The position numbers were made by a program, and so were the translations under genes. From Gracilariopsis chorda (lineage: Eukaryota; Rhodophyta; Florideophyceae; Gracilariales; Gracilariaceae): DNA of 64,000 nucleotides. The notes beneath the pieces are model-generated. The model did not search any database. It saw only the letters and a list, made by a program, of their open reading frames with translations, and was not told the DNA's origin. The DNA lies in contig NBIV01000052.1 of assembly GCA_003194525.1 (NCBI GenBank), forward strand, positions 280,369 through 344,368, given 5' to 3'. Positions 16,305-40,764 of this stretch are shown here, in pieces; position 1 is the stretch's first letter, and each line of letters starts with the position of its first letter.

Positions 16305-19300
16305 CTCCTCCTCGAATCTCTGTCCAGAACCCATACGTTTCAAAATTGTATTAACACTCATACGTTTTAATGGCTTGGTAAGTGTATCTGTATAGTTTAG
16401 CTCACTTGGGACGTAGTGAACACTAATCACATTGTCTCTCATGAGATCTCGGATAAAGTGAACGTTTACATCAGTGTGCCTAGCACGACTAGAAGAACAC
16501 CTTTCACCACCAGCACACTCCAATGCGCACTGGTTGTCAGAGTGTAGAGGAACCAGGTCTTTCGCGTCGAAGCTGCACTATCGTAGCACACAAGCAACCC
16601 ATACCATTTCCTGTGCAGCCCACGTCAGAGGATAGTACTCCACCTCGCCAGTTGATAGCGCAATTGACGCTTATTTTATACCACCATACCAGCAAGTTGC
16701 TGACCTAAGTTTAAAGATATACTCGGACGTTGACTTCTGACTCGCAGTGTCTCCAGCGTAGTCACAGTCCACCAAACCATGCAGATCTAGCGATCCAGGT
16801 CTGTAGCATAGCCTATGCTGTCCCATTCCACACAGGTACCTGAGCACATGCTCACAGCTTTGTGACACCAAACGGTAGGAGCACTTTCAACACCATCCAG
16901 AATGAGAACTGGAGTAGGTATATCCACCCTTGTACGTAGTGCAAAGTACAGCAGAGACCCGATTATCTTCGGGTACAACTGCAGATCCATTGGTGATTTG
17001 GAGTCCTCCGTTGCTAGAGATGTGAAGAAGCACTTCACTACAGGGTTAGGTACTGGTTTAGCGTTCTGGAGACCAAATCGTCGAAGTATACTCTCAATAT
17101 ACAGCGACCCTCTCAGCTTGACACCAAGGAGTTGTCGGGCTGTACCTATCTTCTAGGATAGCTCCAAGGTACAGAGTGATTCAGTTCTCAATGCGGAGGT
17201 CATAGAGTGCTTTGAGCTCCTCTAACACCGTAGTCCGTTGCTCCAGCGTTGGCATGAGCACCAAAATCTCGTCCACGTACATGAGTATGTAGGCGTTCCT
17301 GCGATCTCCAACCTTTCGCTTGAATACGCACGGTGCGCTGGGTAGTTCCTCAAAACCCAACCTCTTCGTGACTGCTTGAACTTGGTATTCCATGCTACAT
17401 GAGCCTGTTTCAAGCCGCACATAGCCTTGAGTAACCTATAGCACTTTGCGGTCAAACGGGGATCAACACGCGGCGACATCACCCACACGTCTCCTTTAAG
17501 CTCACCGTTGAGAAACGCAGTCTTAACATCTACTTAAGCAACATACATCTGAAGACAAATTGCAACGTAAATGAACATGTGGACCAGACTAAATGGCACT
17601 AATGGCGCATATATCTCCATGTAGTTCTGCCTATATGTTTGGTGATTGTCACCAGCCACAACCCTAGCATTGAATCTATCGACCGATCCTTTGGCATAGC
17701 GCTTAACCTTTAAGATGGCATGAGTAGGAAGAGGCTAAGGGGCAGGAGATTCATTCTCCACCCAAGTGTTCTTCTCCTCCAGAGATGTCAGTTCTCCATC
17801 AATGGCATTCTTCCAAAGTCTCTGCTCAAGTGGTCTTTGCCCAGATTAGGTTCATCAATGGTAGTAATATTCATTTGTGACATTGCACTACCCGCCATAT
17901 ACCACCACTTAGCTGGTGCAAGTCGTGTACAGCGAGGAGAGCGTGGTTCGGATTCAGATTCTGGGTAGACATCAGTGTTCGAAGTATGTGACTAACACTT
18001 AGGGCATGCTCACCACCATTTTCTGGGTGCGAATCGTCATTTGAAGTATGCTCACTATCATCTGGATGCTCGGTACTGCTTTCAGTACTCGGTGCCGTTG
18101 GTATTGGAGTGGATTCAGTAGGCTCCGTATATTTCTTAGTATCGAATGGATTGTCCACCGAAACCATACTACCACTCTTAGTATCAATTCCAGATTGATC
18201 TGCACATTCATAAGTATCATCTGATGCACGTTTATCAGTCATAACATGTTCCAGAAATGGTGCACCAGGGAACTTGGACTCGTCAAAGGTCACATGCCAA
18301 GACTTTAAAAAGCATGTAATCCCATCACTATCATTGACTAAAACGTCATACACACCATGTTCAACAATCGACAATTACACTCCCTCAAGTGCGCAAGACT
18401 CGAACTTGGTATGTGGTTTCATCTTAAGCACGAATGCAGCATACCAAAACACTTTGGCATGCTTCAAAAATGGTTTTAAAGCACTCATCAAAAAGTAAAG
18501 GCTGCTTCCAGTTGCATAGTGACAAAACCTATTGCAAACATGTATGAAGTGCTTTAACGCATATGGCCACAATCACTCTGGTAGACTTGCCTGTATGAGC
18601 AAAGCTTGAGCAGCTTCCTCCATAGTGCAATTGACGCGCTGGGCTATTGCATTGTGTTACAGAGTATATGGAGGAGAGAAAGAAATGTCTTGAAGATTGT
18701 TGGCAGGGTTTAACTGCAACAAAATATACTCTTCAGCATTAACCGAGTGCCCTTTTGCAATAACCACGCCTCCAAGCTGCTGGAACTTGTGCTCAACTGC
18801 ATCGAATACAACAAAAATTTCACTATTATGCGTCATGAAGCCTAAAAGTGCAAATCTTGAATGCTCGTCAAGGAATTTAGAGGGATATTGAAACCCTTGT
18901 GGGAATGACGGTAGAAGGGGTCCTAGTATGTCAGATTGTACCACCTGATGTACGGCTGATGCTCGGTCATACTTGCCAGGAAATGGGATTTCCTGGGCCT
19001 TACCAAGCCTACCAGGGCGGCACATCTCTTCCATTTCCGACATTTTTGGCACCCCTTCAGCATATTTGTAAACTGACTGGAGTTCGCGCCCATTGATGTG
19101 GGCAAGTCGCCGATGCCATAGATTAGCAATACTGGACGCCAATGTGTTCATGCAATGATCTCCACCAGTTCGCGACGAGGGTGAGGTTGGGTTGGTACCT
19201 TGCAATATCAGATCGGGGAAGGTGTACAACCCCGAAAGTCGATCGCAATGGCCACTGCTGACTACAACCCCATTTTCCAAGGTGAGACGAACTTCACTTG

Positions 19301-19777
19301 AGTGAAAGAAGGATTCAATGCCCGTATCCACCATCCATCCTACGGACACCAAATTGTATTGCAGTTCTGTAATGAGCAAGACATCAGTAAATGGTAGGTT
19401 TGCGTACTCAAATGGCAGTACTACGTCACCCCGCTGCGTTGCACATACTTTAGTGTTGTGTGCCAGCATGATCGTTCGAGTTTCTACGTGGTGCAGGGAC
19501 TCTGGAATAAACGCAGAGACCAAATGGAAGAAGTGTGATGTAGCACCACTATCAGCCTAGGTGTCCATATGGGGACTGTCGGGGGGTACGATGGAAGACA
19601 TTTCCAGTGCCATACCACATACTTCAGTATTTGATGAACTACCAGTCGGCTTACTTAAAGACTTGGACGCCAAAGATATGCTCTTTGACCTGACTTTAAG
19701 CTTTTCCAGGATGCTTTTGGGTAAATGATTATCCGGGTTATTGGGATTCACATGGCATCTGTCCTTTGTGGGACCAT
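16299..19777 (-). pseudogene. Copia B pol: zinc knuckle end, protease, integrase, RT, RNase H
   Basis: In minus order: end of gag (CHVNPNNPDNHLPKS), protease motif DSGATSHFF about 19,550, integrase from LVSVGWMVDTG and LWHRRLAHING to about 18,570, the integrase-RT linker (FPGAPFLEHVM near 18,250), RT remnants (17,488-17,181, YVDE in place of YVDD) and RNase H (16,871-16,299). The 288-codon stretch 19,523-18,657 is the best preserved. Numerous stops break the remainder. The last residues are FEEEC and the stop codon is formed by the first bases of LTR-B. The gag N-terminus is not adjacent: it is at 29,173-30,027 in opposite orientation (see the inversion finding). Confidence 0.82.
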
Positions 19778-20559
19778 TGTTGTAAAACTACCTGTTCTGT
19801 CACCGAAAACCAAAATTTCCGGGGAGCATGGGCTGTTTTAGAGGGTACCTCTGCAAAAGTGCATGTGCGTCGCTGTACAAACTCAACGTGAATCTGGCTT
19901 GTGATTGGCTACTGCAAATGCACATTCGCACTGTAGTGCGTACAAGTGGTGGTGCACAAGTGGGCTAGACTGGCACACCCACGTGTCCAGCTAGTACAGT
20001 CCGCACAGTGTACAGGGCACGTACCTATGATATTTGGAAATACCGGACATGTGGTACAGCATTGGAACTTTGGTGAGGAGTATGGGTACTATCATCAGGT
20101 TTACAGGTACACGAAGTGGTTAATGACGTGTGAGTTTTCGCATTTACACGTACACGTGATGTGGCGAATTACTGTGGCGTGCATGGATTATTTTGGATGC
20201 GTTGGCATGCGTTGGCATGCGTTGGCATGTGAATCTGTGTTGTGAATTTAGGCTTTGTCATGGTTGTGTGCAGGCACGTAACTTATGGTGCAGTGTTGGC
20301 ACCTTATTTTGTTGAGCTGTTGTAAGGTATCATGAGTTAAGTGCGAGCGGGGCTATGTTATGTTTGGTGATGATTGGTAGTATTGAGTGTCCCCGGCTAC
20401 TGGTTAAAGTTTCAGTTGAAGTCAAAGTTGCGACGAAGACGAAGTTAGAGTTCTATATAAGTTGTGATTGTAGCACCTCCAAGTAAATTCGAGCCAGAGC
20501 TGGCGAACTTCCTTTGCATCCCCCTACCTTTCCTTACCCTTCCGCTTAAACGTCTTACA
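19778..20559 (+). repeat. LTR-C without internal sequence (782 bp), at an inversion junction
   Basis: It begins TGTTGT at 19,778, follows LTR-C of the D elements (ACCGAAAACCAAAATTTCCG, then the GATTGGCTACTGCA block), has a TATA box (ctatataagttgtg, about 20,452) and ends CGTCTTACA at 20,559. Near 20,197-20,229 the 12-bp unit GCGTTGGCATGC is repeated about three times. Its two flanks are unrelated: on the left the B zinc knuckle, on the right an A2 gag. Confidence 0.85.
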
Positions 20560-21170
20560 GTTCCCACGTAATCCCATGGGAGTTCTGAAATCTCCTTCGT
20601 TCTAATTGCTGCTGCGGTTGACTTCAATGAGCAGTGAGGGTCAATACATGCCAGAAGCATGGGTGCGTTATGACATTCAGGTACGGGGACATCCTTGCCG
20701 ATGCAGTCCAGCTGCCAAAACAAAGAGGCAAACTGGTCCCCATACTCGGACACGTTTTGGCCGTCATACGACATTTTGAACAGTTGCATTTGCACTGCTA
20801 TACGATAAACTGTCCTGTTTGATGCATATTGCGCATCAAGTAGCTGAAGCATGCGACTGGGGTCATTATCCACATCCATAAATACACGCATTGGGGCATC
20901 AACAAATGCACAAATGATGATTGCGCCTGCCTTTTTGCGCTTGGCAACTATACGGGAGGGGGTCTGGTTAGCACTAGAACCAGGCGTTTGTGTCATTATA
21001 GCACTGCATGAGTCCTCCAAAATGGACATGACAACATTCCAGACACCTTTAATTCGACACGTGGCACGTACAAGGTGTCGCCAAAGGGTGTAATCTTTGT
21101 CCCGCTTACCGTAGACGCGCGGGCTCTTCACACCAGACGTGGTTTCTGACTCAACTTCGGAGTATGAATT
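20560..21170 (-). pseudogene. Copia A2 gag N-terminal half
   Basis: The frame is closest to the gag at 55,814. It reads MKSPRVYGKRDKDYTLWRHL onward and ends with ELPWDYVG directly at LTR-C. The original start codon position (21,170) is AAT instead of ATG. The rest of this gag is found at 44,948 in plus orientation, where the reading frame resumes in phase after the D element. Confidence 0.8.
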
Positions 21171-21830
21171 GGGTCCAGAAGAAGTTCAGTAAACAAAATA
21201 CGAACGAATAATGTACGAAAATGAAGCAAAGTTAGGGACTCGAAGCTTAGAAGCGCTATCAGGACACACAAAAGAGCTGTTCGAGAGATACAGCTTTGGA
21301 CTGATAGCGGATGTCACAATATGAGGGTGATACTGGAACGGAGTATTCTCAACACTGAACAGTGCGGGTGCCAGTCGAGACCGTGTAATTAAGTCTCAAC
21401 GCTCGTCCAGACGCGTCTGGTACCCGAATCACAGGCGGAGTTCGGGTCTTCGAAGGCCAAGTATACCCAAAAGTGGCTCTGAAGGGCACTCGGAAAAGAA
21501 AGTAAGAGACTAAACTTCGTAAAAGTGGGCGCACTGACAGGAGAGACTACCTCCGCTACCCTAAGGGTTGAACCCATGGACCATGGTGGCTCTCTCTAGG
21601 TGCGAGGTGTGAATTTCTTCAACCTGCCCTACTCCGCGAACGTAACGAGCAGGGTGCTCATTCCGAATGAAACGTCCCAGGGAGGTTACTAAAAAGCACG
21701 ATATGCTTTCACCAGTTAATTCCTGCTGGTCTCTTGCCGGATATAAGCTAGATCTTACGCGCGCACGCAAAGATAAAAGAAGTTGAAACGGAGCGATGTC
21801 TGCAAATATCGATGCTCTAGGCCCATAACC
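21171..21830 (-). other. Leader and primer-binding site of the A2 element
   Basis: On the minus strand this holds the primer-binding site GGTTATGGGCCTAGAGC (21,830-21,814) followed by the leader, with the shared motif at 21,524-21,574. No coding frame is recognised. Confidence 0.75.
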
Positions 21831-22638
21831 TGATGTTCGGAACGAGTATTGGGCAACGGCGCATCTGCTGAACAAAGAAAGAAAGAAAATAAAGAGTGAA
21901 GGTTACCAGTCTTTGGGGCGAGTTTACTTGGTCCTGCGACTTCAGAGTGTTATGTAGCACGTGTAATTCGCACTAACACTACAAGAAAACCCTACACCAC
22001 TAATTGGGGACCCCCAATACTACCAATCATAAATAAACATAACATAATAAAAGTTGCACACACTGATTGCAGCTAAGTACAACCATGCATAAAAACATAA
22101 CAACACATTACAACAACGCACACCAAGTGAACCAAGCAGCCAATTATGCGCAACATGTGAACCAGACAAGCCAACAATGTGCGAGCATGTCACAGCACTG
22201 TGTAAACACTTACTTGCATCATCATGACTATGACAGAGTACAAACTAACATGTCACCGCATCCATGGACGTACCCTAGGGTTGCGTGCATGGTATGTGCT
22301 TACTTTCACAACTGCACCTATGCAACATCTGCATGTAACTGTAAACCAGATGTAGCCACACATATTTCTAAGTACCATGGCCATTCACCTTATGCCTAGT
22401 AGCCAGTTCCGTGCCCATGACCCATAGTATGCACAAAACTTGTAACCAATGCATTGCAGATGAGTATATGCAGTAGCCAATCATATGCCCGTTTCATGTT
22501 GGGTTTGAGAACACAGGCATATGCGCTTTTGCAAAGCAGCGCCAAAAAACAGCCGCGGGTATATGAAACTTTGTTTCCAAAGGCTGCACCATGATTTCCC
22601 AGGACTACCAGGCACTCGGCCATATGCTAACATCAATA
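21831..22638 (-). repeat. LTR-A, 5' LTR of the A2 element (808 bp)
   Basis: On the minus strand it starts TATTGATG (first bases mutated from TGTTGATG) at 22,638 and ends CATCA at 21,831 beside the primer-binding site. The outer flank (22,639 on) is a copia pol fragment in the opposite orientation. Confidence 0.83.
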
Positions 22639-24096
22639 GACTCACCAAAGTCTCAGCCCCTACCAATGCATGTCATACTGTATGTGAAGTGTGACGCAGA
22701 CGACTCCGTTGAACGATTTCTAGATCGAATAATGGCTGGAGGCAACCACCAGACATTTGTTCATGACTATTTAGAGACGTATGCACCAGTTGTTTCGTTC
22801 AATTTGGTTGGCATGTTCTTGTAACTGATGTTGTGCCTGCAGATGTTTGTTGCCAGGTTGACATAAAAACAGCATTCCTTAATGGTGACCTTAAGGAAGA
22901 CGTGTGGGTTATGTCACCGCGTGGCATTCCTGGTCTCAAATAACAATGCTCCAAACTGCTAAAGACTATATACGTGCCTAAGCAGGCTCATCTGGCATGA
23001 CATACGACGTTCAGCACAGACATTACAGGCATAGGTTTAGAAGAATTACCCAGTGCCCCATCTGTTTTCAGGCGCAAATTAGCCACTAACACTTATGCGT
23101 ACATGCTGGTATACGTGGATGACCTTCTCATATTTACGTTTATTGCCGAACAACGTTCTCACATTTTGGAGGAGCTCAAGTCGTTCTACGACCTACGAGT
23201 TGAGACTCGTGTCAGAATGTATCCTAATGCCAAGTTAACATGGAACATGAACCTCAATGGCTAACTGCTAGGTGTGAAACATTCACAGCCGTTGTATGTC
23301 AGTGGCATGTTACTGCAGTTTAGAGTTGAGTATAGGAAGCCTCACGGAGCCCAATGGGGGTATCCTTTTTTTCTTCACTTGATTTGGAGGAAGATAAGTC
23401 ATTGCATGAATTCCAGTTGTATCAGTAGATGATCGGATGTCTGCTGTACCTGGCATTACGACCCGTTTGGACATATTGGCACCTGTACTTATCTTAGCAC
23501 GCTTTCAGAAAGCCCCAACTCGATATTGTCATCGAGTGGTGAAGGGCGTTCTGAGGTATTTACGTGGCACTACTCACCATGGACTTGTGTATCACTCTGG
23601 GAACCTCTTGCTGAATGGTTATGTAGACTCTGATTACGCAGATGATACCACTGATCGGAAGTTTTTGTCTGGCTTCATGATCAAAGTCGGGTCATGTTTT
23701 TTTTTGAACAGTGCCCGTAAGCACGCGTCGGTGGCATTGGCAACAGGCGAGTCTGAGTACTAGTCATTATGGATGGCAAGTCAAGAGCTAATGTGAATAT
23801 TTCGAGTACTTGGAGAATGTAGATTATTGGTTAATGATAGTACTATACTAGGCTCAGACAACCAGTTTGCAATTGAGTGGGGCATTGGTGAGCGTTGCGC
23901 CTCTGGACATGCCAAACACATTGAAGAGAAAAAGCACTTTATCCAGGACTTGGTCAAAAGCAAGTTGATGAGTGTGGAGTATGTGCCAAGTTAGGACAAC
24001 GATGCTGACGTACTCACTAAGCCACTTAATCCTGGTATGACGCAAGTGATCTTGGACCGAGTTGATCTGAACCAGGAACTTGAGGAGGAGTGTTGA
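22639..24096 (+). pseudogene. Copia A-type RT and RNase H, 3' half of an element
   Basis: The copy starts in the RT N-terminus (SPKSQPLPMHVIL) with nothing upstream, and carries RT motifs including a preserved LVYVDDLLIF near 23,110, then RNase H (DSDYADDTTDRKF, ATGESEY, DNQFAIEW, about 23,630-23,880). Stops and frameshifts interrupt it. Its last residues are LNQELEEEC, and the terminal Cys and stop codon are the TGT TGA that begin the following LTR, while GAGGAGGAG immediately before is the polypurine tract. Confidence 0.83.
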
Positions 24097-24717
24097 TGTT
24101 AGCACATGGTCGATTGCCTGGTAGTCCCGGGACATCATGGTGCAGCACTTGGAAACAAAGTCTCATATAACGGAGGGCTGTTTTTGAGAGCTGATTTGCA
24201 AAAGCGCATATGCGTGTGTTCTCAAACCCAATGTGAAACGGGCATATGATTGGCTACTGCATATACTCCTATGCAATGCATTGGTTACAAGTGTTGTGCA
24301 TCCTATGGGTCATGGGCTCGGAACTGGCCACATGGCATAAGGTGAATGGGCATGGTACTGAGGAATATGTGTGGCTACAATGCGTTTGTGGGTGGGGCTG
24401 AGTGGCTGAGGTGCCAGGATGGAATTTGTTGATTTTTTAGAGCTGGTTCCAGATCAAGTGACTTGCAATGGATTTGCTGCATTGATTGATTCAGTTATTT
24501 GAAAGTGTGACACTCTAGATTGCGCGCGCTTTTCGTGTACACCTGCACACACGAGGAACGTGTAGTGTAATGGTGCAACCGCCACCGTCGCGTGCTGCAA
24601 CGACAGTGAAGTGTGTGCGGTAGGGTATATGTAAGTTGCGCTTACACGCTCTCGAGTAAAGTGGTCTAGTAAGACTGGCAACCTTGACTTTTTTTTTCTT
24701 TCTTTCATTGTTGAACA
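24091..24717 (+). repeat. Chimeric LTR: LTR-A front, LTR-B back
   Basis: From TGTTGATG at 24,091 to about 24,384 it follows LTR-A. From about 24,385 (gcgtttgtggg) it matches the second half of LTR-B, as seen in reverse at 52,561-52,930, including the segment GTGCCAGGATGGAA and the TGTACACCTGCACACACGA stretch. It ends near TTGAACA at 24,717. No half-tRNA primer-binding site follows. Confidence 0.75.
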
Positions 24718-25363
24718 GATCAGCCGTATACCAATACTAGTTATATATATCAGTTTTTGCTTTGCGCATATTGTGGAGACGTAGTTGCAGAGGTGGAAGT
24801 AGGCAAAGCGCTCAGTGACTTGTCTCTGGTGAAAGCATATAGCGCTTTTAAGTAACCTCCTTGGGACGTTTCGTACGGATTGAGCACCCAGCTCTCGAAG
24901 TGCACAGAGTAGGTCAGGTCGAAGAAAATCGCACCTCCCACCTGTAAAGAGCATCTAGGGTCTAGGAATTCAACCCTTAGGGTAGCGGAGGTAGCTTTTC
25001 CTGTCAGTGCGCCGGCGTTTACGAAGTTTCATCTCTTACTTTCTTTTTCGAGCGTGCTGAAGAGCTGCTCTTGAGGACACTCCCCTTCGAGAGGACCCGG
25101 ATTCCACCTTTGAATCGCGTACCACACGCGTCTCGATGAGCCTTGAGACTTTTTCAAACGGTCTCCGCTGGCACCCTTGTTTTTGAGTGTTGAGATTACT
25201 CCATTCCGGTATTCATTCCTTATTGTGGTCTCAATTTAAAATTTTGGCTGATCCTCGGATTTAACCCTTTCCATCTCTTAGAAATCGGTTTTTTAGAATC
25301 AGTGAGTCCCCCATTCTGCTTTGCAACATATTTCCATTGGTGTTTCAGCTCCTTCTGGAAGCA
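24718..25363 (+). other. A-type leader without primer-binding site
   Basis: The GGTTATGGGCCCAG site is absent and the first 50 bases are diverged; from the segment CATATTGTGGAGACG on, the leader is A-type, with the shared motif at 24,966-25,013. Confidence 0.65.
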
Positions 25364-27334
25364 TATCTGACTCCGAAGCTGAGACTGAAACTATCTCTGG
25401 TGTGAAAGTCCCACGCATTCATGTTAAGGGTGGTAAGGATTATACACTATGGCAGCATCAACTTCGTGCAGAGTGTCACAATTAAAGGTGTTTGGGATTT
25501 AGTGGCGTAAACTCTAGATGAGTCATCGAGTGCTACATGTACTCAAGATTTAACCTCCAGTGCTGCTCCGAGCAGTTCCCGACTCCAGGGAAAACGCCAA
25601 AAGGCATGTGCAATCATCATTCGTGTACTTGTATATGCCCATTAACGGGTAGTCATAGATATGGATGACAATCCTGGCCACATGCCTAGACTATTACATG
25701 CACGTTATGCCTCAAATCGAACGGTATCTCATATCGCTGTACATATTCAACTGTTCCAAATGTCGTATAATGGCCAAAGTATGTTGGAATATGTCGACCA
25801 GCTTGCCACGTTATTCTCACAGTTGGACCGAATGGGGAAGGAAGCTGCCATTCCAGATTCACGTAAGGCTTCAATGCTGTTGGTGTCTATTGACCCCAAC
25901 TGGTCACTGGAGTCAAGTGCTGCTGCACTTAAAATTAAGGAGATCTCCGAACTAGAGTGGGACTATGTGGGAACTACTTTGATTGACAAATACAATGCTC
26001 GTCAACTTGGTTCTGCCAGTTCCAGTCCTGGTCCTAACCGTAACCAGAACTGAGTTAAGGAGAACCGCCGTCACTTTGAAAGCAATAGAATGTCAAATGG
26101 AGACGAAAGTGATGGTAGCGCATCAGATTCCAACTTCAAATTTGAATCGAATGGGGGTGCTTATGCTGTTGCCAGCAAAAACGGTTATCACTGCACCTTT
26201 TGCGACCAAAACGGTCATAAGCGGGAGCGATGCCACATGAACCCCGAAAATCCGAATAACCCTCTACCGAAAATCATCTTGGACCCTCCAAACCTTCCGA
26301 GAAAGGCCAAAGAGGAGGATCCAAGATTGAGATCGCCGGGATGGGTGTCAAGACGTTTACGGTCCTCCCATCTGATTATAAAGGACTGGCCACCAATACG
26401 GAGAGAGGAACCACGTCCCATTTCTTTTGTTCTGCATCCGCGTTTGTACCAAACACATTTTTTGATGTTTCTCCGAGGTCAACTGAGCTTACTGACGACA
26501 CCAGCGTCACAGCGACATAACAAGGAAATGTTTCACTGCCATTCGTCGAGGCTAACCTGCGATTGACAGAAGTACTGCTAGTACCAGATCTTGGGTACAA
26601 CTTGGTTTCTGTTGATCGTATGGCCAATAATGGCATTCAATCGATGTTCTGTGCAAATTAGGTTCGCCTTACACACAAAAAGGGGTTTCATATTGGATGT
26701 GGTCAGCGATACATGCGCCCTAGGTTTTACACTCTGCCACGTCCAATCGAGCATACCAAACACAGAACGCTTCTATCTGCTAAAGACTTAGATCTCACAA
26801 AGCTGTGGCATTGCCGAATGGCACATATAAACCCACGAGACCTTCAAAAGGTACACGAGCAAGTTGATGGAGCGCCAAAGCTAAAGCACATAGAAGAGGT
26901 ATGTTTGCCGTGTCGACTGGGCAAGGCGCTTAGACTTCCGTTTTTGGAAAGGTTTACGCGAGCAAAAGAGGTTGGAACCATTGTGCACTCGGACATCCTT
27001 GGTCATATGCTCCCATCATTTGCTGATCGTTTTCAATTTGCGGCTGCGTTCATCGAATACCCCGCACGGTATGCTCTGCTTGGCTCTATGTTGCATAGAT
27101 CTGAGATTACTGATGTATTTTCGGGGATAGGGCAGAAGCTCCAGCAGCTTGGAGGAGAGCATGTGCTTGTTCAGAAATTGCACTGGCACAATTCAGAAGA
27201 GTACATTTCACTACAAGAAAATCCTGCCAATGATCTGCAGGCAGCGTCGTTCTGACCTCTTTATACCCTGAAACAAAAAGCCATTGCCGAGCGCATCAAT
27301 CGCACTACGAAAATGTCGGCTCTAGCTTTGCCAA
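25364..27334 (+). pseudogene. Copia A gag, protease and integrase, split by a solo LTR
   Basis: The start codon is ATA in place of ATG (25,364). Gag is recognisable through 26,053 (QLDRMGKEAAIPDSRKA), the knuckle as HCTFCDQNGHKRERC near 26,190. The protease has lost its catalytic triplet: relatives have DSGATSHF, this copy has RGTTSHFF. The integrase zinc region (LWHCRMAHIN, CLPCR) and most of the core follow to 27,255. A solo LTR-A at 27,335 splits the conserved segment RALLIQANLPE; the reading continues at 28,128. Confidence 0.8.
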
Positions 27335-28127
27335 TGTTGATGCTGGCACATGATTGAGTGATTTGAAGCCCTAAGAAATCATGAGAGCCTACTTGAACAC
27401 AAATTTACATATAACGATGGGTCGTTTTGAGCAGTTTATTTGCAGAAGGGCCTATGTGCGTTTGCTCGAACCCAACGTGAAACGGGGTTATGATTGGCTA
27501 CTGCATTTGCCCTTATGCATTACGTGGTTTCCAAGTGTTACGCATTGTATGGGTCTTAGGCACAGCATGGGCCACTTGGCACAAATTGAATGGACAACGT
27601 ACATGAGGTTCTGTGTGGCTACATCTGGTTCCCAGGTACATCACGTTGCTGCAGAAGTGTGATTGTGTGTGCCAGCACGTTCACGGCACGCCAAGGACTT
27701 AGGTTATCGATATCGATGCAGTTTCATCTGAACTTGTGCATTGTCATGGTGATGATGACCCAAGAAAGTCATTATACAGGGCTATGAAATGCTGGCACAT
27801 TGTTGTCGTGGTGGTTTCACATACCGTGCTTCGTTGGCACGTGCTGGATTAATTTCATGCATGATTGTAGTGAAATATCACCTGTTCGTGCGCCCCTTAT
27901 TATGTTAGGTGTGAATATAATTGGTAGTGTTGGGTTTCCGCACTTAGTGGTTAGGGTTTTTCTTGTAGTTATACTACACTCTATTGGTCCTATATAAGTT
28001 GCAGATGTTGCAGCTCCAAGTAAACTACCCCAAATCTGACAAAATTTACTCCTGTTTTTACTTCTTTCTTTTTTTCTCACTTCAGTCGAAGCCCAACGTC
28101 ATCTATTCAGTTCATTTATCATCAACA
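27335..28127 (+). repeat. Solo LTR-A (793 bp) inside a copia A integrase
   Basis: The ends are perfect: TGTTGATG at 27,335 and CATCAACA at 28,127, so this copy defines the LTR-A termini. A TATA box (ctatataagttgcag) lies about 27,990. The flanking pentamers are GCCAA (left) and GCTCA (right), an imperfect pair; relatives read GCTCA here, so this is a plausible decayed target-site duplication. Confidence 0.88.
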
Positions 28128-28867
28128 GCTCATTCAGGCCAATTTGCCAGAATGTTTATGGCTGTATGCATTAAATAATGTTATATGTGTTCGCAATAGA
28201 GTTCCCCACTCTACCATTGGCTTGACTCCATACCTGTTAGTGACTGGTAGTAAGCCGTTTTTGACGTACGCCAGAGTGTTTGGATGCGCAGTATATGTAC
28301 TGAGAAAAAACTCGGACACTAAGTTTGAGTCTTGTGCACTTGCGGGAGTGTACCTGTAGACTCTAGATCATGGTGTTTACGAGATTTTGATCACTGATGA
28401 CTTTATTATTCCTCGAATTATGAGGTCCCGGTATGTAACGTTTGATGAATCCACATTCCCTAGGGCACCATATCTCACCATTTACATGGTAACAAAAGTG
28501 CATCAGATATTGACTATAGTAGCACTGGGTACGACAGCTGTAGTGAAAGCTCAGATGCGTTCTCACTTCATGGTTTCGAAGAACTCCGATCTGTCCCAGA
28601 AACTATTACAACGGATCATGCAGCAGAAACTATCAATGATGTTGAAATTCCAGTTTTAGACCCTTCTTCTAGTGAAGCCGGTGACAGCGAGGACAGCGAG
28701 AGTGATCTTAGTGATCTTGGTGAGTCGAATCTTCAGTCTGGAATAGGCTTTAGGTATCCTCGACGCAATCGGCGTGCACCATAACGTTGGTTGCATATGG
28801 CTGGTGCTGCTACTTCTCAAGTCCAGGTGACCACCAGTAATGACCCAACACTTCAAGAAGTTTTATT
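28128..28867 (+). pseudogene. Continuation of the copia A copy: integrase end and linker
   Basis: It resumes with IQANLPE-like sequence (cattcaggccaatttgccag) and continues through the C-terminal integrase part (YALNNVICVRNRVPHSTIGL), the FDESTFPRAPYLT segment and the acidic linker to the ATSQVQVTTSNDPTLQE stretch before RT. It breaks off at about 28,867 against an unrelated leader, so RT is missing. Confidence 0.78.
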
Positions 28868-29172
28868 TGTGTCCAGGCTCGTATCCATACGTCCTGTGAG
28901 TATAATCTGGGCGTTGAGTACCCAAACTCTACCTGTGATGGCGTATGAGACGCGTCTCGATGAGCGTTGTAGACTTGGTTACACGGTCTCCGCTGACGTC
29001 CTCGCTGTCTAGTGTTTGAGATTCCTCCCCGCTCCAGTTCTTTTGATTCTTTGTATAACAGAAGCCTTGAAATCTCTCCTTCTGTTTCAATAGATTGTGT
29101 GCATATCGCTAAAATTTGGCAATTACATAGTTGCTTTTGTTGTTTTTCTTTGCGTTTAGTCCACTATGAACC
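28868..29172 (+). other. Truncated leader of the displaced copia B gag
   Basis: The start matches the later part of A-type leaders (gacgcgtctcgatgagcg, then acacggtctccgctg); the rest is diverged. LTR and primer-binding site are missing. Confidence 0.6.
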
Positions 29173-30027
29173 ATGTGTGACTCCGAATTTGAAACGGAAT
29201 CCACCTCTTCAATGAAAATTCCTCGTTTTCCTGGTAAGCGTGGTGGTGATTATATGCTGTGGCGTCGCTGTCTTCGTACTGGATGTCGTAATAATTGTGC
29301 CTAGAATGTCGTGAATTCCTCTGGTGTTCAATCTACTACAGATAGTTCCACTCAGGACACAACTAGGGCAGGTAACGGCACTGAAGTAGTAGCTCCCCGC
29401 ATCATTGCCAAATGATAAAATACTTATGGTATCATCATATGTGCTCTTGGTTATGCCCCACTACCCGTAATCATGGACGTGGATGATGATCTTGCACGTA
29501 TTTTGAAATTCTTGGATGGACGTTACGCATCCAATAGGACTGTATCTAGGATTGCAGTACAGACCCGATTGTTCCGAATGTGGTACAGCGGTGAGCACAT
29601 GTCCAGCTATGGGGATCAATACACGGCATTGTTCGCTCATTTAGACCAGGTGGGCAAGGATGCTGCTATACCAGATTCTCACATGGCACCTATGCTACTT
29701 GCTTTCATTGATCAGAGCTATTCATTGGAGTCCACGGCTGTTCCACTACGTACCAAATACACATCGGAATTCAACTGGGACTATGTGGCAACCACTTTGA
29801 TCGATGACTACAATGTTCCTCAGGTCAGCTCTTCTAGTTTTGGACGTATGCGAAGTCGAAAGAAGAACCGAAGCAAAGGTTCTGGTGCTTCGCTTGTGTC
29901 GAAAAGCTCTTTTCATACGCAAATCAGGGACGGAAGTGACTCTGATGATTGGCCAAGTACAGCTGGTAGAGCATTCATGGTGTCCGGTAACCGGATTTAT
30001 CACTGTCAATTCTGTGATAGTGATGGT
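29173..30027 (+). pseudogene. Copia B gag N-terminal half, displaced by inversion
   Basis: ATG at 29,173 opens MCDSEFETESTSSMKIPRFP. The 197-codon stretch 29,473-30,027 is clean and clearly gag (MDVDDDLARILKFLDGRYAS), though divergent from A and A2. Two adjacent stops sit near 29,413. It ends within the zinc knuckle, just after HCQFCDSDG, at ATGGT, where LTR-C begins. The same pentamer in reverse complement (ACCAT, 19,773-19,777) flanks the LTR-C at 19,778, next to the missing remainder of the knuckle. Confidence 0.8.
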
Positions 30028-30799
30028 TGTAAGAATTTGAAGTGCAAGGGAAAGGAAAGGTAGGGGGATGCAAAGGAAGTTCGCCAGCTCTGGCTTGGAT
30101 TTACTTGGAGGTTATACAATCACAACCTATATAGAACTCTAACTTCGTCTTCGTCGCAACTTCGACTTTAACTTAAAACCTAAACCAGTAGCCGGAGACA
30201 CTCAATACTACCAATAATCATCTAACAAAACATTGCCACGCTACCACTTAACTCATGATACCTTACACCAACTCAACACAATAACGCGCCAACACCGCAC
30301 CATAAGTTACGTGCCTGCACACAACCATGACAAAGCACAAATTCACAACACAGATTCACATGCCAACGCATGCCAACGCATCCAAATACATCTATGAACG
30401 TCACAGTAATTCACCACATCACGTGTACGTGTTAGTGCACCAACTTACACGTCCTTAACCACTTCGTGTACCTGTGAACCTGATGACAGTACCCATACTT
30501 CTCACCTAAGCTCCACTGCTCTAGCTCATGTGCGGTGTATCCAATTATCCTAGGCACGTGCCCTGTACACTGTGCGCACTGTAATAGCTGGACACGTGGG
30601 TGTGCCAATCTAGCCCACTTGTGCACTATCACTTGTATGCACTACAGTGCATATGTGCATATGCAGTACCCAATCACAAGCCAGATTCACGTTTAGTTTG
30701 CACAGCGGGGTATATGCGCTTTTGCAGAGGCACCCTCCAGAACAGCCCATGCTCCCGGAACATTTGGTTTTCAGTGAGAAAAGAGATACTTTTCGAACA
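30028..30799 (-). repeat. LTR-C, 3' LTR of the copia D element (772 bp)
   Basis: On the minus strand it starts TGTTCGAA at 30,799, directly after the polypurine tract (gagagaaggaggg, 30,812-30,800), and ends CTTACA at 30,028. It aligns end to end with the 5' copy at 44,170-44,947. Its inner or outer half may have been exchanged with the LTR at 19,778, since the inversion breakpoint lies within the two repeats. Confidence 0.87.
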
Positions 30800-33700
30800 C
30801 CCTCCTTCTCTCACTGACTTCATAAGTATAGGGGTAGCAGGCCACTGTCACTGCGAAGTGTCTCCAGCTTCACCCCACCAAGTGCCTTTGTAAGCATACC
30901 AGCAACCATGTCTTCCGTAGAGCAGTACTGCAGCTGAATAGCTCTTTACGTAGAGCCTCTCGTTTGAAGTGAAAGCGAATGTCGATATGCTTCGTACGCT
31001 TATTGAGAACTCCATTCCGGGCGAGGTCTATGGAGCCTTGGTTGCCCACATAAACCAGTGTGGGTTCAACCATCAGCATTACTGACTCATCTACGTTCAG
31101 GCCAATTGCATCACTAATGGCACTCGAAAATTGTCTCAGCCAGATCGCCTCTTTCGCTCCAGAACATAGACTCACATACTCAGCCTCGGCCCTGGACAGC
31201 GCAACTACTTCCTGTTGGCGTGAGCTCCAAGACACAGGAGCACCACCCATAGTGCATACATACCCCCTAGTAGACTTGCGAGTGGATGTGTCACCTGACC
31301 AGTCCGAGTCTACATATCTATAAAGCTGAGTATCCGCGCATGATCCATACGTGAGTCCAAAAGATCTAGTGCCACTGAGGTACCTCAGTACACGCTTGAC
31401 TGCATTTCAATGAGTCTCTCCAGGTGTCTCAACATATTTTGCTAGCTTGGAGACTGCAAAAGATATGTCCAGTCGAGTACCCACAGAAAGATACATTAGA
31501 GAGCAACTCACTGGCATGTAAGGGATGCTTGTAATAGGTTCCTCAATCTGAGTAAGGTTCACTTTGGAGTCCATGGGAGTGTCCACTGGCTTCGATTGAC
31601 ACATGTTGGAGCGTTCGAGGACCTTGTGCGTGTACGCTGACTGCGTGAGTTACAACGTTTTCTTAGCTCGGTTCCAACGAATCTCAAATCTTAGAGTCAT
31701 GCGAGCATCATTCAGGTCCTTCATTCGAAAACGGTTCGACAGGTCAGTCTTCACTCGATCTATTGCATACATTGATGGACTTGCTATGATTTGGTCGTCC
31801 ACGTACAGAGCAATGATCACCAGCACTTCCAGTATCATCCCGATTTAAACACACTCGTCAGCACTGTTTGGCTTCAGACCCAGTTCTTCAACAAGGAAGG
31901 CATCAATCTTTGCATGTCATTGCCTTGGTGCCTGTCGCAGCCCATATAGAGCTTTCTTTAGTTTGCACACCAAATCCTCGTCGCCAGCTTTGACGAACCC
32001 ATCTGGCTGCGCCATGTACACAGTTTCCTCTAGGTCGCCATTCAAGAATGCAGTATTCACATCCATCTGGTGTAGGTGGTAGTACTGCACTGCCACAATG
32101 GAGATAATCACCCTTATGGATGTAAACTTGAGTACTGGTGCATACGTCTCTGAAACATCGACGCCCTCAACTTGTACGAAACCACGAGCAACCACGAGAG
32201 CCTTTTACAGCACTGTTGGTTCACCACTTGCACTGTCCTCATACGTTTGCACAAATATCCATTTGGACGAAATCGAGTTGCTGTTGGCTGGTCTTGGCAC
32301 TAAGTCCCATGTGTCATGCTCTATCAAGGACTCATACTCACTGTCCATAGCTTTGATCCACGCTTTGGAATCTTGTCGGGACACTGCATCTGAATACGAA
32401 GATGGGATGTCATCACTGGCTGTGAGTAGGGCTGTGCCACGCCACCAAGACGTAGGTGCTTTGCGTTCACGAGTGCATCTTCGGAGTGTTTGTGGTTCTG
32501 GTATAGCGAGGTCACTCTGAGAAGCAGCTGTGGGCGCATTATGACGGTCTGAATCATCGTCAAGTGCAGTGTCTGGTGCAGCAGGATCATCTTGAGCAGC
32601 ATGGGTGGGTGTTGTAGAAATAGAAGTGACGTTCGATTTCAACTTTTCTGATATTTCAATTTCAGCATAGTGGTCATCATTGACTTGTTAAGTACCTTGA
32701 TCGGAATCACTACACTCGTCAAATATAACATCCCTGGACATAACTACCTTCTTTTTCTGATCATCCCACAATTTGTACCCATGCAACCAGATGTGTACCC
32801 AATAAAGGTCGCCTCTATTGCACGTGGCTCTAGCTTTTTCAGCTTTTGGGCCACTATTTTGTACCAGCATCGACTACCAAACCCACGCAGATTGCTCAAG
32901 TCAGCCTTTTGGTCTACTCCACAATTCGAATGGTGTGAAGTTATTTGGGAGGGCTTTACATGTCACTCTATTGCGCACGTACACTGCAACGTTCCGTGGC
33001 TCTGCCCAGAAACTGTTAGGCAGATTTTATGATGCAACATTGACCTCACCAAGTCCATGAGTGTTCTGTTAAAGCGTTCTGCGTGACCATTCTGCTGTGG
33101 ATTGTAAGGAACCGTGCTCTGAGGTTCAATACCATGGCATTCACGTTCGTGTGTAAACTTCTATGACGAATATTCACCAGCGTTGTCTATGCGTAACGCA
33201 TGTAAGACACATTTGCGGGCAGTTATAGTCTTCACATGGTTGCCAGTCTGGCTTTTGGCAAGCTTTAGCCACTTTGCAAACATTCGCAGCTCCTCAACTT
33301 CGGTCTTGACGTGTGAACGAAGCAAAAACGGGAGTAATCATCAATGAATGTGACAAAGTACCGCGAGCCACCCAAGGAAACAACCTGTCTTGGACCACAG
33401 ATATCAGAGTGGACGAGGTCCAATGGTGCCTTAGCCCGTCCCCCCCTTGCTTGAAGTGGGAGCGCGGGTAGACGTGGCCACAATACAGAAGTCACACACA
33501 TCAACCGATTGAGTCACATCCCCATTCAGCCCTGCCACAGCACCAATTTGAGCCATGTGCTTGATGCAATTCACATTTATATGAGCCGTTCGTCGATGCC
33601 ATAGTGAAAAGTCTGACAAAAGTGCGCGATTGGATTGTCTCGATGGGTCAATTTCGGTGCAGAAGTAGTACAGGCCTTTAATGCGACGCCCGTTTGCAAA

Positions 33701-34606
33701 CAGTGCCGAGCCCTTTTACACACACACTTCGTGCTTTTCGACCACTACAGTAGCACCCCAGTCACACATCGAAGATACTGAGAGCAGATGGTACTTCACG
33801 GTCGGTACATGCACCACATTTCTCAACCGGCACTCAAGCTTTTGCACTCAATTATCAAGATCAATGTTGACACTGCCATGGCCAGGTGACTCTAACTTGG
33901 AATCATTACCGATGCTCACACCAGACAAAATTTTGCTCTCGTACGTTTAAAACATGGATTCATCATAAGTCATGTGCGCAGTTGCTCCAGAGTCAACGAT
34001 CCAGTCACTGTTGGTGGCCTTGTTAGAACCGCTGGCAGTGAGACAAACGTAGGCAGAACCACTGCAGCCCACAGCCTCCTCGTTGCAGAGAACTGTGTGC
34101 AAATTTGGGTGGGCAGCAGCATTTTGTCTTTTGTTAGCCTCATCACGCTGTTTCTTAGAACAGTTTCTCTGGATATGACCCATCTTGCCACAGTAGTAGC
34201 ACACAACTGACTTCTGCCAAGACTCCCTGCCGACCAAAGCTGCGTCACTACCAGATTCTTCCTTTGCAAAGTCATGCATTCGCTGCTCTTCTTGCAGCTT
34301 ACGACTCTTCACAAACTCCAGCTCGAGTTTGCAGTCACCAATTGTATTTTCAGTGGCAACAATGAGGTGCTATAAGCGTTCCGGTAGTTCACATAGGATA
34401 GCCATAGAAATGTCTTCCTACTCAACCGTGACGTCCATACTCTTAAGATCCGATGCGGGATGAAGTACGCGATTGATGAAATGTAACATTTTTTCTTCAT
34501 CCCGCATCTTGGTGGTATAGAAAGAACGTCGCACATTGATTCGGTTCAGCAACGTCTTGCGCTGAAACACATCGTATATGGCTTTCCACATTTCTGCAGC
34601 ATTTTC
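30800..34606 (-). pseudogene. Copia D gag end, protease, integrase, RT and RNase H
   Basis: In minus order: gag remainder from 34,606 (TENAAEMWKAIYDVFQRKTL), knuckle CYYCGKMGHIQRNC about 34,200, protease DSGATAHM about 33,985, integrase zinc region LWHRRTAHIN about 33,600, integrase core (HSDICGP near 33,405; the NPQQNGHAERFNRTL region near 33,080), a linker with RRCTRERKAPTSWW, RT (32,195-31,650, with ALYVDDQIIA near 31,800) and RNase H (31,250-30,870, RAEAEYVSL and VGNQGSIDLA). Stops interrupt most modules. It is the same family as the copy at 61,387. Confidence 0.85.
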
Positions 34607-34611
34607 GGTGT
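34607..34611. repeat. Left target-site duplication of the gypsy element (GGTGT)
   Basis: GGTGT precedes the LTR at 34,612 and recurs at 42,783-42,787 after the other LTR. The D gag reads through the site when one copy is removed, as in the uninterrupted relative at about 61,608. Confidence 0.93.
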
Positions 34612-35136
34612 TGTAGTAGAATACTACGTCTTTTGGCCAACTGCGGTAGTAGTCTACTAGGGGTTAGTAGCAGCAGAGAGCCAACCACTGGGGTGACAAT
34701 CCACTGGGTCTATTAGTACGCGGGCACCAACTGGCAGCGAGGCGCAATGGGCGGGCGCTATCTCAAGTCCCTACAGGTCAGGAGAATGGTAGCGATGGCT
34801 TGGACACCTTTGGATTCCTACTGGCTGTATATGGCGGCAAGAAGACGGTGAGGGTGCTTCTCTTTACGCTTCAGAGATCGGCGGCACTCGAGCCAACCTA
34901 TATGGCTGGCGAGGCACTCTGACCTCCGAACACTATCCTAACAAATTAAATAAAATTAGCTACATAATAAAACCTATGGCCACAGTGCATTGGCACTTGC
35001 ACTGTCACCTCGTATCTCCTGCATAGGCACCCAGATTGGTCAGGTGGAATATTTCGGCCAGCAATGTTCTGACCTCTGCCAGCCCAGCCTCATGGTTACT
35101 TCAACACTGCATCTGCCCAATGGTCATTCTCCTACA
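34612..35136 (-). repeat. LTR-G, 3' LTR of the gypsy element
   Basis: The termini are TGTAG and CTACA. A palindrome near one end (tgtagta, gaa, tactac) could form a hairpin. On its inner side the minus strand reads GAGGGTGGAGGTC, a good polypurine tract. It lies just upstream of the plus-strand frame at 35,177 and could supply that frame with a promoter; this is inference. Confidence 0.9.
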
Positions 35137-35176
35137 GACCTCCACCCTCAAGATCCGACGTCCTGTGGGCACTTCC

Positions 35177-37498
35177 ATGTTGGTTAGCTATCCTTTTCTT
35201 CCGCTGGCGTTCTTTCCTCCCGCCAAATGGGGTTCTTATTCTCGCGTCCTCTCCCCCGATTAGGTCTATCGCCTCCTGGTTGACATGGCCAGTCGGCCCC
35301 TCCACAGGAGGTACGGTGGCGGTACCGGTTTGCGTCCATTTGGTTGCTTTTTCGGCAAGTGGCACGTTGCCGCTACCATTCCATCGGTCACCTATGAGGG
35401 GGCCTCATTAACTAGTGAGTGTCAATTGCGAGGCGCTCCTCGTGTTCCTGCATTTCACCGACCCCTGGCGCTGACGCCCGTACTTCCCTCTAGAATACCT
35501 CCTCCTTCTGGTCGCTCTTTTCTCGGCATACCGCCTTGGTGCATCCACCATAACCGCCCCTTCGGTGGATCGTTATGCAATCCCTCGGCCTTTCAGATTC
35601 CTGACCGTTGGTCTCCCCTGGCGCCGTGTCCGCTGTACCTTCTTGTTGATCGCGTCTACGCCATGTTCCCGGGGGCCTATAAGGGCTCCCATGGCTACCT
35701 CTTGGACTAAGACGGCATCGAAAGTATCCCTCGGGTGGCAATAACTGTAGACTCGACCAACATGGCTCTGGTCCCCAGCAGCGCACATGACCACCCCGGG
35801 GACAAGTACGACCACACTTTGGGTTGGACTCCTATGGCCGTGAGGAGTACCTATCTACCCAGTTCGGTCGCCGAGTGCGTGCAGTATGCTGACCAGTACT
35901 TGGACGCCCGGCAGTTCGCTGCAATCCCCAACTATGCTCGTGCGAAGAAGAACTCCCAAGAGGACTCCTGGTACAACCGTTGGCTCCACCTTCCTGCTGA
36001 TGCCCGTTCGGTCGCGCGTTACCGCGCTCTGGTCCCACCGGATATGCCCTTCGTCCGCTGCAGTGAGGAGTGGGATTACCAATGGAGAGTTAACAAGCCC
36101 CTGGAGGACTTGTATTCGATGCATGGGGACCCTAAGGCCCCATTTCCTCCCCCTGGTCATAGCCTCCTGGGGTTAGTCTGCTTCAGACCTCCATATGACC
36201 GCTTGTACTGGTTATCGAACCGGACCTATTGGAATGATATGATCGAGCCCGATGGTCGTATTTGAACCAACCTCAAGTACTTCTTCTGTTGGCACCAAGT
36301 GGAATTTCACGATATGCCTCCGTCCAGCAGGTCTTCTCTATATCTCATGCTACCATCACTTAGCGCCGGACATGAGGCTGCCCTCTGGCACGTTTCCGAT
36401 CTCATTATGGTCCCTACTCCGTCCGTGGTGGCCTACAACACCTATCAGCTCCAGGGGGACCTCACTAAACGTCTCCCATGGCTGACCTGGCAGGTTGTTT
36501 TTGCCAAATGGGCCGTGTTCTGTTTGATGGCCTTTCTGGATACCGCCCGCTATGGGGTCCAAGCTAACGTCCGGAAGGCCGACTGCCGTATCTGGATCGA
36601 ACGGGTTCTTCCCATTCCTGAAGGCCGACTCGTGCCCCTTCCGTGGCCCTTGATCCGGCTCATCCGTGAGTTGGGAGTGCAAAACATTGTCCGGGGTACG
36701 GAGTACGAGAGTAAAGAGGCCGAGGCCCTATGGGATTATGTCCTTCAGGTGGACTGGGCGCAGACCCCCGGGTTCCTTTGATACGATTATGACACCGACA
36801 CCTTCTTCCCGATCCCGGGACATACTTTAGGCAATGATGACGGGAACGTCTACAAGGCCAAACCATTTCTGGCTGTCTCCGTGAACGACCCACGTCAGTC
36901 AGTGCCAGATTAGTACCCTCAGGCCATTGTGTTTGACAAAGATTGTCTTCTTCCTCCAATACGGAAGCAGGCGGTAGTTCCTGTACCGGCCCCATCGGTA
37001 GCGCCGTCTTTCGTGCCAGCGCATGCGGTTGCCGTGGTAGAGCCCCCAGAGGCGTCCATCCGTCCCTTGGCTTCCCAACCTCCTACGTCGATGACGGTTT
37101 CCGCCCCTATGATCCCTCCTTTGCCTCCCGTGCCGGTCTTTTAAGAGGTCATTACAATGGCCTTCGATGACCTGAAGAAGGTATGCACTTCCGTTGGTAT
37201 CCTTGAACCCACTGATATCGTAGAAGCTCTTCGTTCCGCCCAATCCTGGGCTCGCCAGGCTTTGCGGTACCACTCGCTGGTTCAGCGTAACCAAGAGGTC
37301 AAAAACGCCTTAGCCACCTACCCGGAGGAGAACTCTAAGGAGTTGTCTGAGCGTGTCGCGACCGACCTTGATAAACGCTTCGGTCTTAACCGTTTGGACA
37401 CGGAGTCCGCTGGTGATGCCTCATCCTCTTCCGCCCGAAGTCCGGCTCGCAAGCGCGCCCGCACGGGATCCCCTCCTCAACTGGCTGCGTCGTCCTAG
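35177..37498 (+). pseudogene. Unrecognised 2.3-kb reading frame, antisense inside the gypsy element
   Basis: One plus-strand frame runs from ATG 35,177 to TAG 37,496-37,498 (about 773 codons) without a frameshift but with six in-frame stops: TAG 35,261, TAA 35,708, TGA 36,263, TGA 36,779, TAG 36,911 and TAA 37,142. The product is rich in Trp, Tyr and Pro, e.g. EEWDYQWRVNKPLEDLY and YDRLYWLSNRTYWNDM, then LPWLTWQVVFAKWAVF and a Pro/Val-rich linker about 36,960-37,140. The last 114 codons are charged and probably helical (LRSAQSWARQALRYH) and end in a basic stretch PARKRARTGSPPQ resembling a nuclear localisation signal. I recognise no family. Position between integrase and 3' LTR, antisense to pol, recalls the additional antisense frames of some plant Ty3/gypsy lineages. 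All six stops could arise by C-to-T change from CAG, CAA or CGA. Confidence 0.65.
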
Positions 37499-37734
37499 TG
37501 GTCGTCCTTGTGGTTAATAGTCCTTAGTAAACACTATGGTTCCCTTTTTGGCCCTTCTAGCGTCAAGGTAGGCGTCTTCTCTGTCGTGCTCCATTGGTCT
37601 TCATCTCAACCCTTGAATACCACTAGGTCGGTTTTGAACTAAGTCCCTGTGGTTCTGGTGCGCTCTCTTAATAAATGAGCCGTCCGCGCTTCGTTCCTGA
37701 GTTTTTCGGCCTTGACGACCGAGGGACTTTGGAG
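37499..37734. other. Spacer between convergent pol and antisense frame
   Basis: The two coding regions of the gypsy element meet tail to tail here. I see no motif in this 236-bp stretch. Confidence 0.5.
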
Positions 37735-40700: not shown

Positions 40701-40764
40701 TGTCCATGGCCCGCTGGGAAGTAGCTGGCGCATTCATAAGACCAAAGAGCATCCGTGTAAATCG
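37735..40764 (-). pseudogene. Gypsy pol: RT (N-truncated), RNase H, integrase with chromodomain
   Basis: RT starts in the middle (FTRMLFGLMNAPATSQ) and carries YLDDVIIF near 40,660. RNase H includes TIRTDHHSLRWLL and HQAADALSR. Integrase (39,504-38,905) has an HHCC-type zinc region (CAACAKIQRTR) and a DD35E triad: D in ALDILGPF, D in LFTDHCSQF and E in TERFNRTL. The C-terminal part has KSTGPFKVPKSLG in another phase. A chromodomain (REYVLDRIISAG, then RYKVRWYGYEP and DNFVARYW) lies at about 38,107-37,950. RT, RNase H, integrase and chromodomain are all in one phase, broken by nonsense codons; only the part near 38,720-38,240 shows frameshifts. Confidence 0.88.

What the first reader, a model, noticed from the sequence alone, without database searches (positions are those of the whole stretch)
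19778..30799. A 9.5-kb inversion between two opposed LTR-C copies, proven by swapped target-site duplications
LTR-C occurs at 19,778-20,559 (plus) and 30,028-30,799 (minus). Left of the first is the 3' part of a B gag knuckle (minus) preceded by ACCAT; left of the second is the 5' part of a B gag (plus) ending ATGGT, the exact reverse complement. Right of the first is the 5' half of an A2 gag (minus) ending, in gag sense, GGAAC; beyond the D element, at 44,948, the same gag resumes with GCGAC. If 20,560-30,027 is flipped, both gags close in phase: a solo LTR-C with a perfect ACCAT duplication inside B, and a full D element inside A2. The sequence shows the flanks and frames; ectopic recombination between inverted LTRs is the inferred mechanism.
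Basis: partly seen in the sequence, partly recalled or inferred. Interest (0 to 1): 0.86.

Follow-up and report, generated by a model that had tools for sequence, protein, structure and literature searches.

The report
Small inversion between opposed retrotransposon LTRs
A 9.5-kb piece of what is probably a red-alga genome appears to have been turned round by recombination between two oppositely oriented copies of the same retrotransposon end, leaving two interrupted genes in swapped halves; it is a clear example of a known kind of rearrangement.

Summary
LTR-C copies L1 (19778-20559, +) and L2 (30028-30799, -) bound a 9,468-bp segment. Mapped separately onto other genomic copies, the two B gag parts meet with exactly 5 bp overlap in 39 of 39 fetched loci with close B copies (34 distinct places), at ATGGT/ACCAT. 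The A2 gag halves also overlap by 5 bp in 5 of 5 close copies where both are adjacent, though that target-site duplication now reads GGAAC/GCGAC (3 of 5). L2 follows a purine tract and L3 (44169-44947) precedes a primer-site-like sequence, so they are taken as the 3' and 5' LTRs of one element, D; L1 has neither and is a solo LTR. L2 and L3 share seven derived sites up to LTR position 696 and form a clade (93.4/98), so the flank exchange lies in the last 86 bp. One inversion by ectopic recombination explains all this. A misoriented assembly predicts the same swapped flanks and cannot be excluded without reads, but is unlikely. Known mechanism, new instance.

The parts
19778..20559 (+). L1: LTR-C copy, solo (no purine tract before it, no primer-site-like sequence after it)
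30028..30799 (-). L2: 3' LTR of element D, preceded in sense by a purine-rich tract (AGAGAAGGAGGG)
   Evidence: sister of L3 with support 93.4/98 over LTR positions 1-696
44169..44947 (-). L3: 5' LTR of element D, followed in sense by a primer-site-like sequence (GATTATTGGCCCA)
30028..44947 (-). Element D, both LTRs present, with element E nested inside
   Evidence: homology to the element at 59009-63995, whose gag ORF is copia-type; D's own domains were not scanned except 43730-44167, which had no Pfam hit
34612..42782 (.). Element E nested in D; LTRs 93.6% identical; perfect TSD GGTGT; RT/RNase H and integrase pieces in gypsy order on the minus strand
20560..30027 (.). Inverted segment (9,468 bp between the LTR edges); the true ends lie inside the last 86 bp of L1 and L2
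20474..20559 (+). Crossover interval in L1 (LTR positions 697-782); includes the 44-bp run identical to L2 at 20492-20535
30028..30113 (-). Corresponding crossover interval in L2; the 44-bp identical run is at 30052-30095
19773..19777 (+). TSD copy ACCAT of the L1 insertion in B
30023..30027 (+). Other copy of the same TSD, inverted (ATGGT), now beside L2
20560..20564 (-). TSD copy of D (GGAAC in gag sense), now beside L1
44948..44952 (+). Other TSD copy of D (GCGAC)
18171..19777 (-). 3' part of the B gag region
   Evidence: (ORF 18657-19523: Pol_BBD just over, gag_pre-integrs just under the Pfam cut-off)
28855..30027 (+). 5' part of the B gag region
   Evidence: no Pfam hit in its ORF
20560..22639 (-). 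5' LTR and 5' half of gag of an A2 copy
   Evidence: (Retrotran_gag_2, below the Pfam cut-off)
44948..47307 (+). 3' half of gag and following region, taken as the same A2 copy

Best explanation
An LTR-C element inserted in the gag of a B element (5-bp TSD ACCAT) and was reduced to a solo LTR. A second LTR-C element, D, inserted in opposite orientation into the gag of an A2 element about 9.5 kb away (5-bp TSD). Ectopic homologous recombination between the solo LTR and D's 3' LTR, with the crossover in the last 86 bp of the LTRs, inverted the DNA between them and exchanged the flanks. Shown: orientation, LTR anatomy, exact 5-bp register at both sites, D identity of L2 up to LTR position 696. Inferred: order of events, solo formation by LTR-LTR recombination, and homologous recombination as the mechanism.
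For: Exact 5-bp register of the B parts in 39 of 39 fetched loci with close B copies (34 distinct places) and in 19 of 19 adjacent pairs of the capped hit lists. Same register for the A2 halves in 5 of 5 adjacent close copies. Solo L1, purine tract before L2, primer-site-like sequence after L3. Seven shared-derived sites L2=L3 at LTR positions 17, 107, 246, 251, 355, 567 and 696, against one L1=L3 (388) and none L1=L2, judged on 32 other copies. L2+L3 clade 93.4 SH-aLRT / 98 UFBoot over positions 1-696. Both A2 halves fall beside the same copy, L050, with weak support (0.37 and 0.79). Two other solo LTR-C copies have perfect 5-bp duplications (AACTT, GAGTT).
Against: D's restored TSD matches at only 3 of 5 bases. 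Beyond LTR position 696 no site meets the shared-derived criterion, and the ambiguous ones (697 L2=L3, 743 and 780 L1=L2, 767 L1=L3) conflict, so reciprocal chimerism is bounded but not shown. L1-L2 identity is only 87% today; the 44-bp identical run is not longer than expected if mismatches are placed at random (P 0.12). Site 388 (C in L1 and L3, T in L2 and all 32 others) runs against the pattern and is taken as parallel change. No reads or relatives were available.
Confidence: 0.88

Rival explanations
1. Assembly artefact: the 9.5-kb segment is misoriented between two inverted LTR copies, and the real chromosome still has a solo LTR in B and D in A2.
For: It predicts the same swapped flanks; the exchange interval contains the longest L1-L2 identical run, 44 bp; tandem duplications at 50235-50614 (100%) and 59009-59770 (99.5%) in the window could be join artefacts.
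Against: There are no Ns in the window. L1 and L2 differ at 109 of 783 aligned columns, gaps counted, so a read longer than 44 bp can tell them apart. The same assembly keeps apart B copies that are 95.0-98.6% identical over 3.0-4.2 kb; three of the eight compared lie in contigs of 182-470 kb, the other five in contigs of 55-82 kb, which suggests long reads (inference).
Confidence: 0.07
2. Breakage and end joining at both LTR ends, without homologous exchange, inverted the segment.
For: The exchange lies within 86 bp of both LTR 3' ends.
Against: Both junctions keep full LTR ends and full 5-bp flanks with no loss or gain, which requires breaks at the same LTR coordinate on both sides; homologous exchange gives this directly.
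Confidence: 0.03
3. No inversion: four unrelated half-genes lie beside LTR-C copies through independent insertions, truncations and duplications.
For: The region is densely nested and some other LTR-C loci have mismatched flanks (C171). The tree support for the A2 halves being one copy is weak.
Against: Two independent gene pairs meet at the exact base with a 5-bp overlap, one with a 5/5 TSD.
Confidence: 0.01

Closest known systems
Galileo-generated inversions in Drosophila buzzatii (PMC2775673; passages seen, one of them from the abstract)
   Same: Two copies in opposite orientation at the two breakpoints, exchanged TSDs, ectopic recombination as mechanism.
   Different: Galileo is a DNA transposon with 7-bp TSDs; there both copies were reported as chimeric and non-inverted chromosomes were compared. 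Here the copies are LTRs of a copia-type family with 5-bp TSDs, chimerism is only bounded, and no uninverted relative is available.
Chromosomal inversions attributed to LTR retrotransposons by ectopic recombination (a passage of PMC12368964 names such cases in D. melanogaster; mismatched TSDs as a mark of LTR-LTR exchange between endogenous retroviruses is recalled, not read)
   Same: Oppositely oriented LTR elements as recombination substrates.
   Different: Here a solo LTR and the 3' LTR of a two-LTR element were used, both nested in other retrotransposons, over only 9.5 kb.

Membership tests
TE-mediated inversion by ectopic recombination (criteria as in PMC2775673) | Two homologous copies in opposite orientation at the breakpoints | tested here: met
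   L1 + and L2 -, 87% identical over the whole LTR
TE-mediated inversion by ectopic recombination (criteria as in PMC2775673) | Exchanged target-site duplications | tested here: met
   ACCAT exchanged, 5/5; the second TSD is in exact register but 3/5 identical
TE-mediated inversion by ectopic recombination (criteria as in PMC2775673) | Both copies chimeric | tested here: inconclusive
   L2 is D-type to position 696; no site beyond meets the criterion
TE-mediated inversion by ectopic recombination (criteria as in PMC2775673) | Uninverted order seen in another chromosome or relative | not testable with these tools
   No relatives are held for G000; every non-window row is at most 90% identical, so no second haplotype showed up in these capped lists
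Ty1/copia LTR retrotransposons (A2 family) | copia-type gag and RVT_2, integrase before RT | tested here: met
   In-window A2 copy, ORF 55814-59020: Retrotran_gag_2, Pol_BBD, gag_pre-integrs, rve (below cut-off), SH3_retrovirus, then RVT_2
Ty1/copia LTR retrotransposons (LTR-C family) | copia-type gag and RVT_2, integrase before RT | tested here: inconclusive
   Relative of D, ORF 61387-62577: Retrotran_gag_2, Pol_BBD and zf-CCHC; its integrase and RT were not scanned

The most novel reading that the evidence does not exclude
The confinement of the flank exchange to the last 86 bp of both LTRs is not chance but marks an end-specific process, such as integrase-made nicks at chromosomal LTR ends that start the exchange.
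Probability: 0.03. Interest if true: 0.65.

Novelty: new member of a known kind. Interest (0 to 1): 0.36.

Why it matters
It is an unusually well-resolved inversion: both insertion sites can be read to the base in nested retrotransposon coding sequence, and the crossover is confined to 86 bp. If real in the living strain, it shows a solo LTR acting as a recombination partner in a retrotransposon-dense, probably florideophyte genome, and that rearranged LTR flanks can be decoded from family alignments alone.

Tried and rejected
Chimerism test by raw three-way site counts: the cluster of L1=L2 sites near LTR positions 730-747 looked like a conversion tract, but one search shows that these are mainly changes private to L3. 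The 44-bp identical L1-L2 run is not significant on its own (P 0.12). The tree of LTR positions 697-782 has no resolving power. TSD edge finding by script misplaced several LTR ends (L2 among them), so TSDs quoted for other copies were read by eye, and only for the copies named. Organism naming: the gag search listed Chondrus crispus at 40-52% identity, below 23 unnamed hits; the actin search (best 120 of a capped candidate set listed) gave one 100% match without a name, Gracilaria domingensis 88% and Gracilariopsis 82-83%. The species stays open. Gracilariopsis chorda had been my guess from the assembly size and was dropped because of the actin result.

Literature searches (open-licence library only) listed no paper that I recognised as describing an LTR-LTR inversion with exchanged TSDs in a red alga. 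I saw listings and abstract openings, and passages of PMC2672092, PMC4079660 (nothing on inversions), PMC2775673 and PMC12368964.

Full report
Setting. The window is the last 64 kb of a 344,368-bp contig (C52) of a 91.3-Mb assembly in 1,081 contigs. Among named relatives of one of its gag ORFs are Chondrus crispus proteins at 40-52% identity, and an actin of the genome is 88% identical to that of Gracilaria domingensis, so a florideophyte red alga is likely; the species is not known. The window is a dense nest of copia-type elements with at least one gypsy-like element.

What is there. Three full LTR-C copies matter: L1 19778-20559 (+), L2 30028-30799 (-) and L3 44169-44947 (-). In sense, L2 is preceded by AGAGAAGGAGGG; 14 of the 36 other copies compared have a similar purine tract there (exactly ACAGAGGGAGGG in 4). 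L3 is followed by GATTATTGGCCCA; 15 others have a similar primer-site-like sequence there (exactly GGTTATGGGCCC in 11) (read by eye). L2 and L3 are therefore taken as the two LTRs of one element, D; L1 has neither mark and is solo. D contains a younger element E with a perfect GGTGT duplication and LTRs 93.6% identical; D's own LTRs are 87.8% identical.

The B site. The sequences left of L1 (19777 downward) and left of L2 (30027 downward) are the two parts of one B gag region. Genome searches with each part apart gave capped lists of 39 non-window rows each; the 19 pairs that lie adjacent on a contig all overlap by exactly 5 bp. In the fetched loci, 39 of 39 with close B copies (85-89% identity; 34 distinct places after removing five seen twice) overlap by exactly 5 bp; in 38 of the 39 the overlap reads ATGGT and in L058 AAGGT. 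Five further sources (L051, L052, L053 and two A-family stretches of the window) matched only at 65-73% with alignments ending before the junction and say nothing. The 5 bases are ACCAT at 19773-19777 and ATGGT at 30023-30027.

The A2 site. Position 56420 of the in-window A2 copy lies opposite both 20564 and 44948, which means a 5-bp overlap once the alignments are run to the LTR edges. In the fetched loci, 5 of 5 close copies with both halves adjacent overlap by 5 bp (L050, L051, L052, L058 and the window copy, 79-90% identity); L053-L057 do not hold both halves side by side. B-family loci also match A2 at about 70%, but their 5' alignments stop near query position 1308 of 2080 and do not bear on the junction. 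For the hit lists I gave the first 39 of the 64 non-window rows (the rest are shorter second pieces) and the 39: six adjacent pairs have raw overlaps of 1, -1, 1, -5, 5 and 5; running to the query ends, five of these become 5 and one (C436) becomes 13, presumably through an indel. The family reads GCGAC in four of the five copies and GCTAC in L052; the window has GCGAC on the right and GGAAC on the left, so the duplication is in exact register with two changes. Each half of A2 (the 3' half by its first 1,497 bases) falls next to the same copy, L050, in a six-row tree, with weak support (0.37 and 0.79).

Codon phase. From the ORF coordinates, the first base of ATGGT is a second codon position on both sides of the B site, and 20564 and 44948 are both first codon positions at the A2 site, as is 56420 in the in-window copy. 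The ORFs 29473-30063 and 44984-45460 had no Pfam hit, so their being gag rests on homology. The joined genes were not built.

Where the exchange happened. L1, L2 and L3 were aligned with 36 other copies (four partial matches left out) and compared against 32 of them after dropping four near-duplicates. Sites where two of the three share a state found in at most 15% of the others while the third has one found in at least 60%: L2=L3 seven times (LTR positions 17, 107, 246, 251, 355, 567, 696), L1=L3 once (388), L1=L2 never; 12 further sites are ambiguous and 113 are private to one copy. The tree of positions 1-696 joins L2 and L3 with 93.4/98. L2 thus remains D's LTR up to position 696 of L1's 782, and the exchange of flanks must lie in the last 86 bp. 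The longest identical L1-L2 run, 44 bp at 20492-20535 and 30052-30095, lies in that interval but would arise by chance with P 0.12. The sites beyond 696 are ambiguous or private, so the chimera itself is not shown.

Is the 5-bp duplication a family trait? Read by eye: two solos have 5/5 (C344 AACTT, C77 GAGTT), one solo 4/5 (C297 TCCCT/TCCCG), one two-LTR element 5/5 (C286, CATCA, with an eroded LTR edge) and one 4/5 (C272, CGAAG/CGAAC). Against: the solo at C171 (TGTGC/TTTCC), the C272 element at 60698-67441 (GTGTA/CCAAC) and the C98 pair (TTCTC/GAATA, which may not be one element) do not match. C171 and C272 lie in visibly rearranged surroundings. The remaining copies were not scored.

Mechanism and rivals. 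Recombination between inverted copies predicts opposite orientation, exchanged duplications and chimeric copies; the Galileo study names the same three marks (PMC2775673). The first two are met, the third is bounded. The serious rival is misorientation by the assembler. It cannot be refuted here, but L1 and L2 differ at 109 of 783 columns, the window has no Ns, and the assembly keeps apart B copies 95.0-98.6% identical over 3.0-4.2 kb, three of the eight compared in contigs of 182-470 kb and five in contigs of 55-82 kb, so long reads probably spanned these 780-bp LTRs (inference).

Verdict. A well-resolved case of a known process: new member of a known kind, moderate interest.

Noticed in passing
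G000:C171:85900-88200 (L095): A solo LTR-C with unlike flanks sits in an A2 leader and is followed by about 67 bp of A2-type LTR in reverse and then A2 gag: a second rearranged LTR-C locus.
   Followed up: partly
G000:C272:48000-68250 (L091-L094): Two two-LTR LTR-C elements in opposite orientation have outer flanks that are inverted copies of each other, 94% over 827 bp; the inner flanks do not match each other, though one inner flank (L093) matches the outer ones at 83% over about 430 bp. Looks like an inverted duplication.
   Followed up: partly
G000:C123:9317-19867: The A2 5' region occurs four times at exactly 2,825-bp spacing.
   Followed up: no
G000:C101:265630-279397: Five LTR-C copies in one orientation; one (272124) has a purine tract on the left and a primer-site-like sequence on the right, as an LTR shared by two elements would.
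   Followed up: no
window 50235-50614 and 59009-59770: Tandem duplications of 190 bp (100%) and about 381 bp (99.5%, at the start of another LTR-C-like element); recent events or assembly joins.
   Followed up: no
window 496-2457: 653-aa open frame (minus strand) with an RVT_1 reverse transcriptase domain at the left end of the window.
   Followed up: no
B family, many contigs: Eight B copies compared are 95.0-98.6% identical to one another, while listed B copies other than L058 are 86-89% identical to the window copy: probably a recent burst with the window copy outside it.
   Followed up: partly
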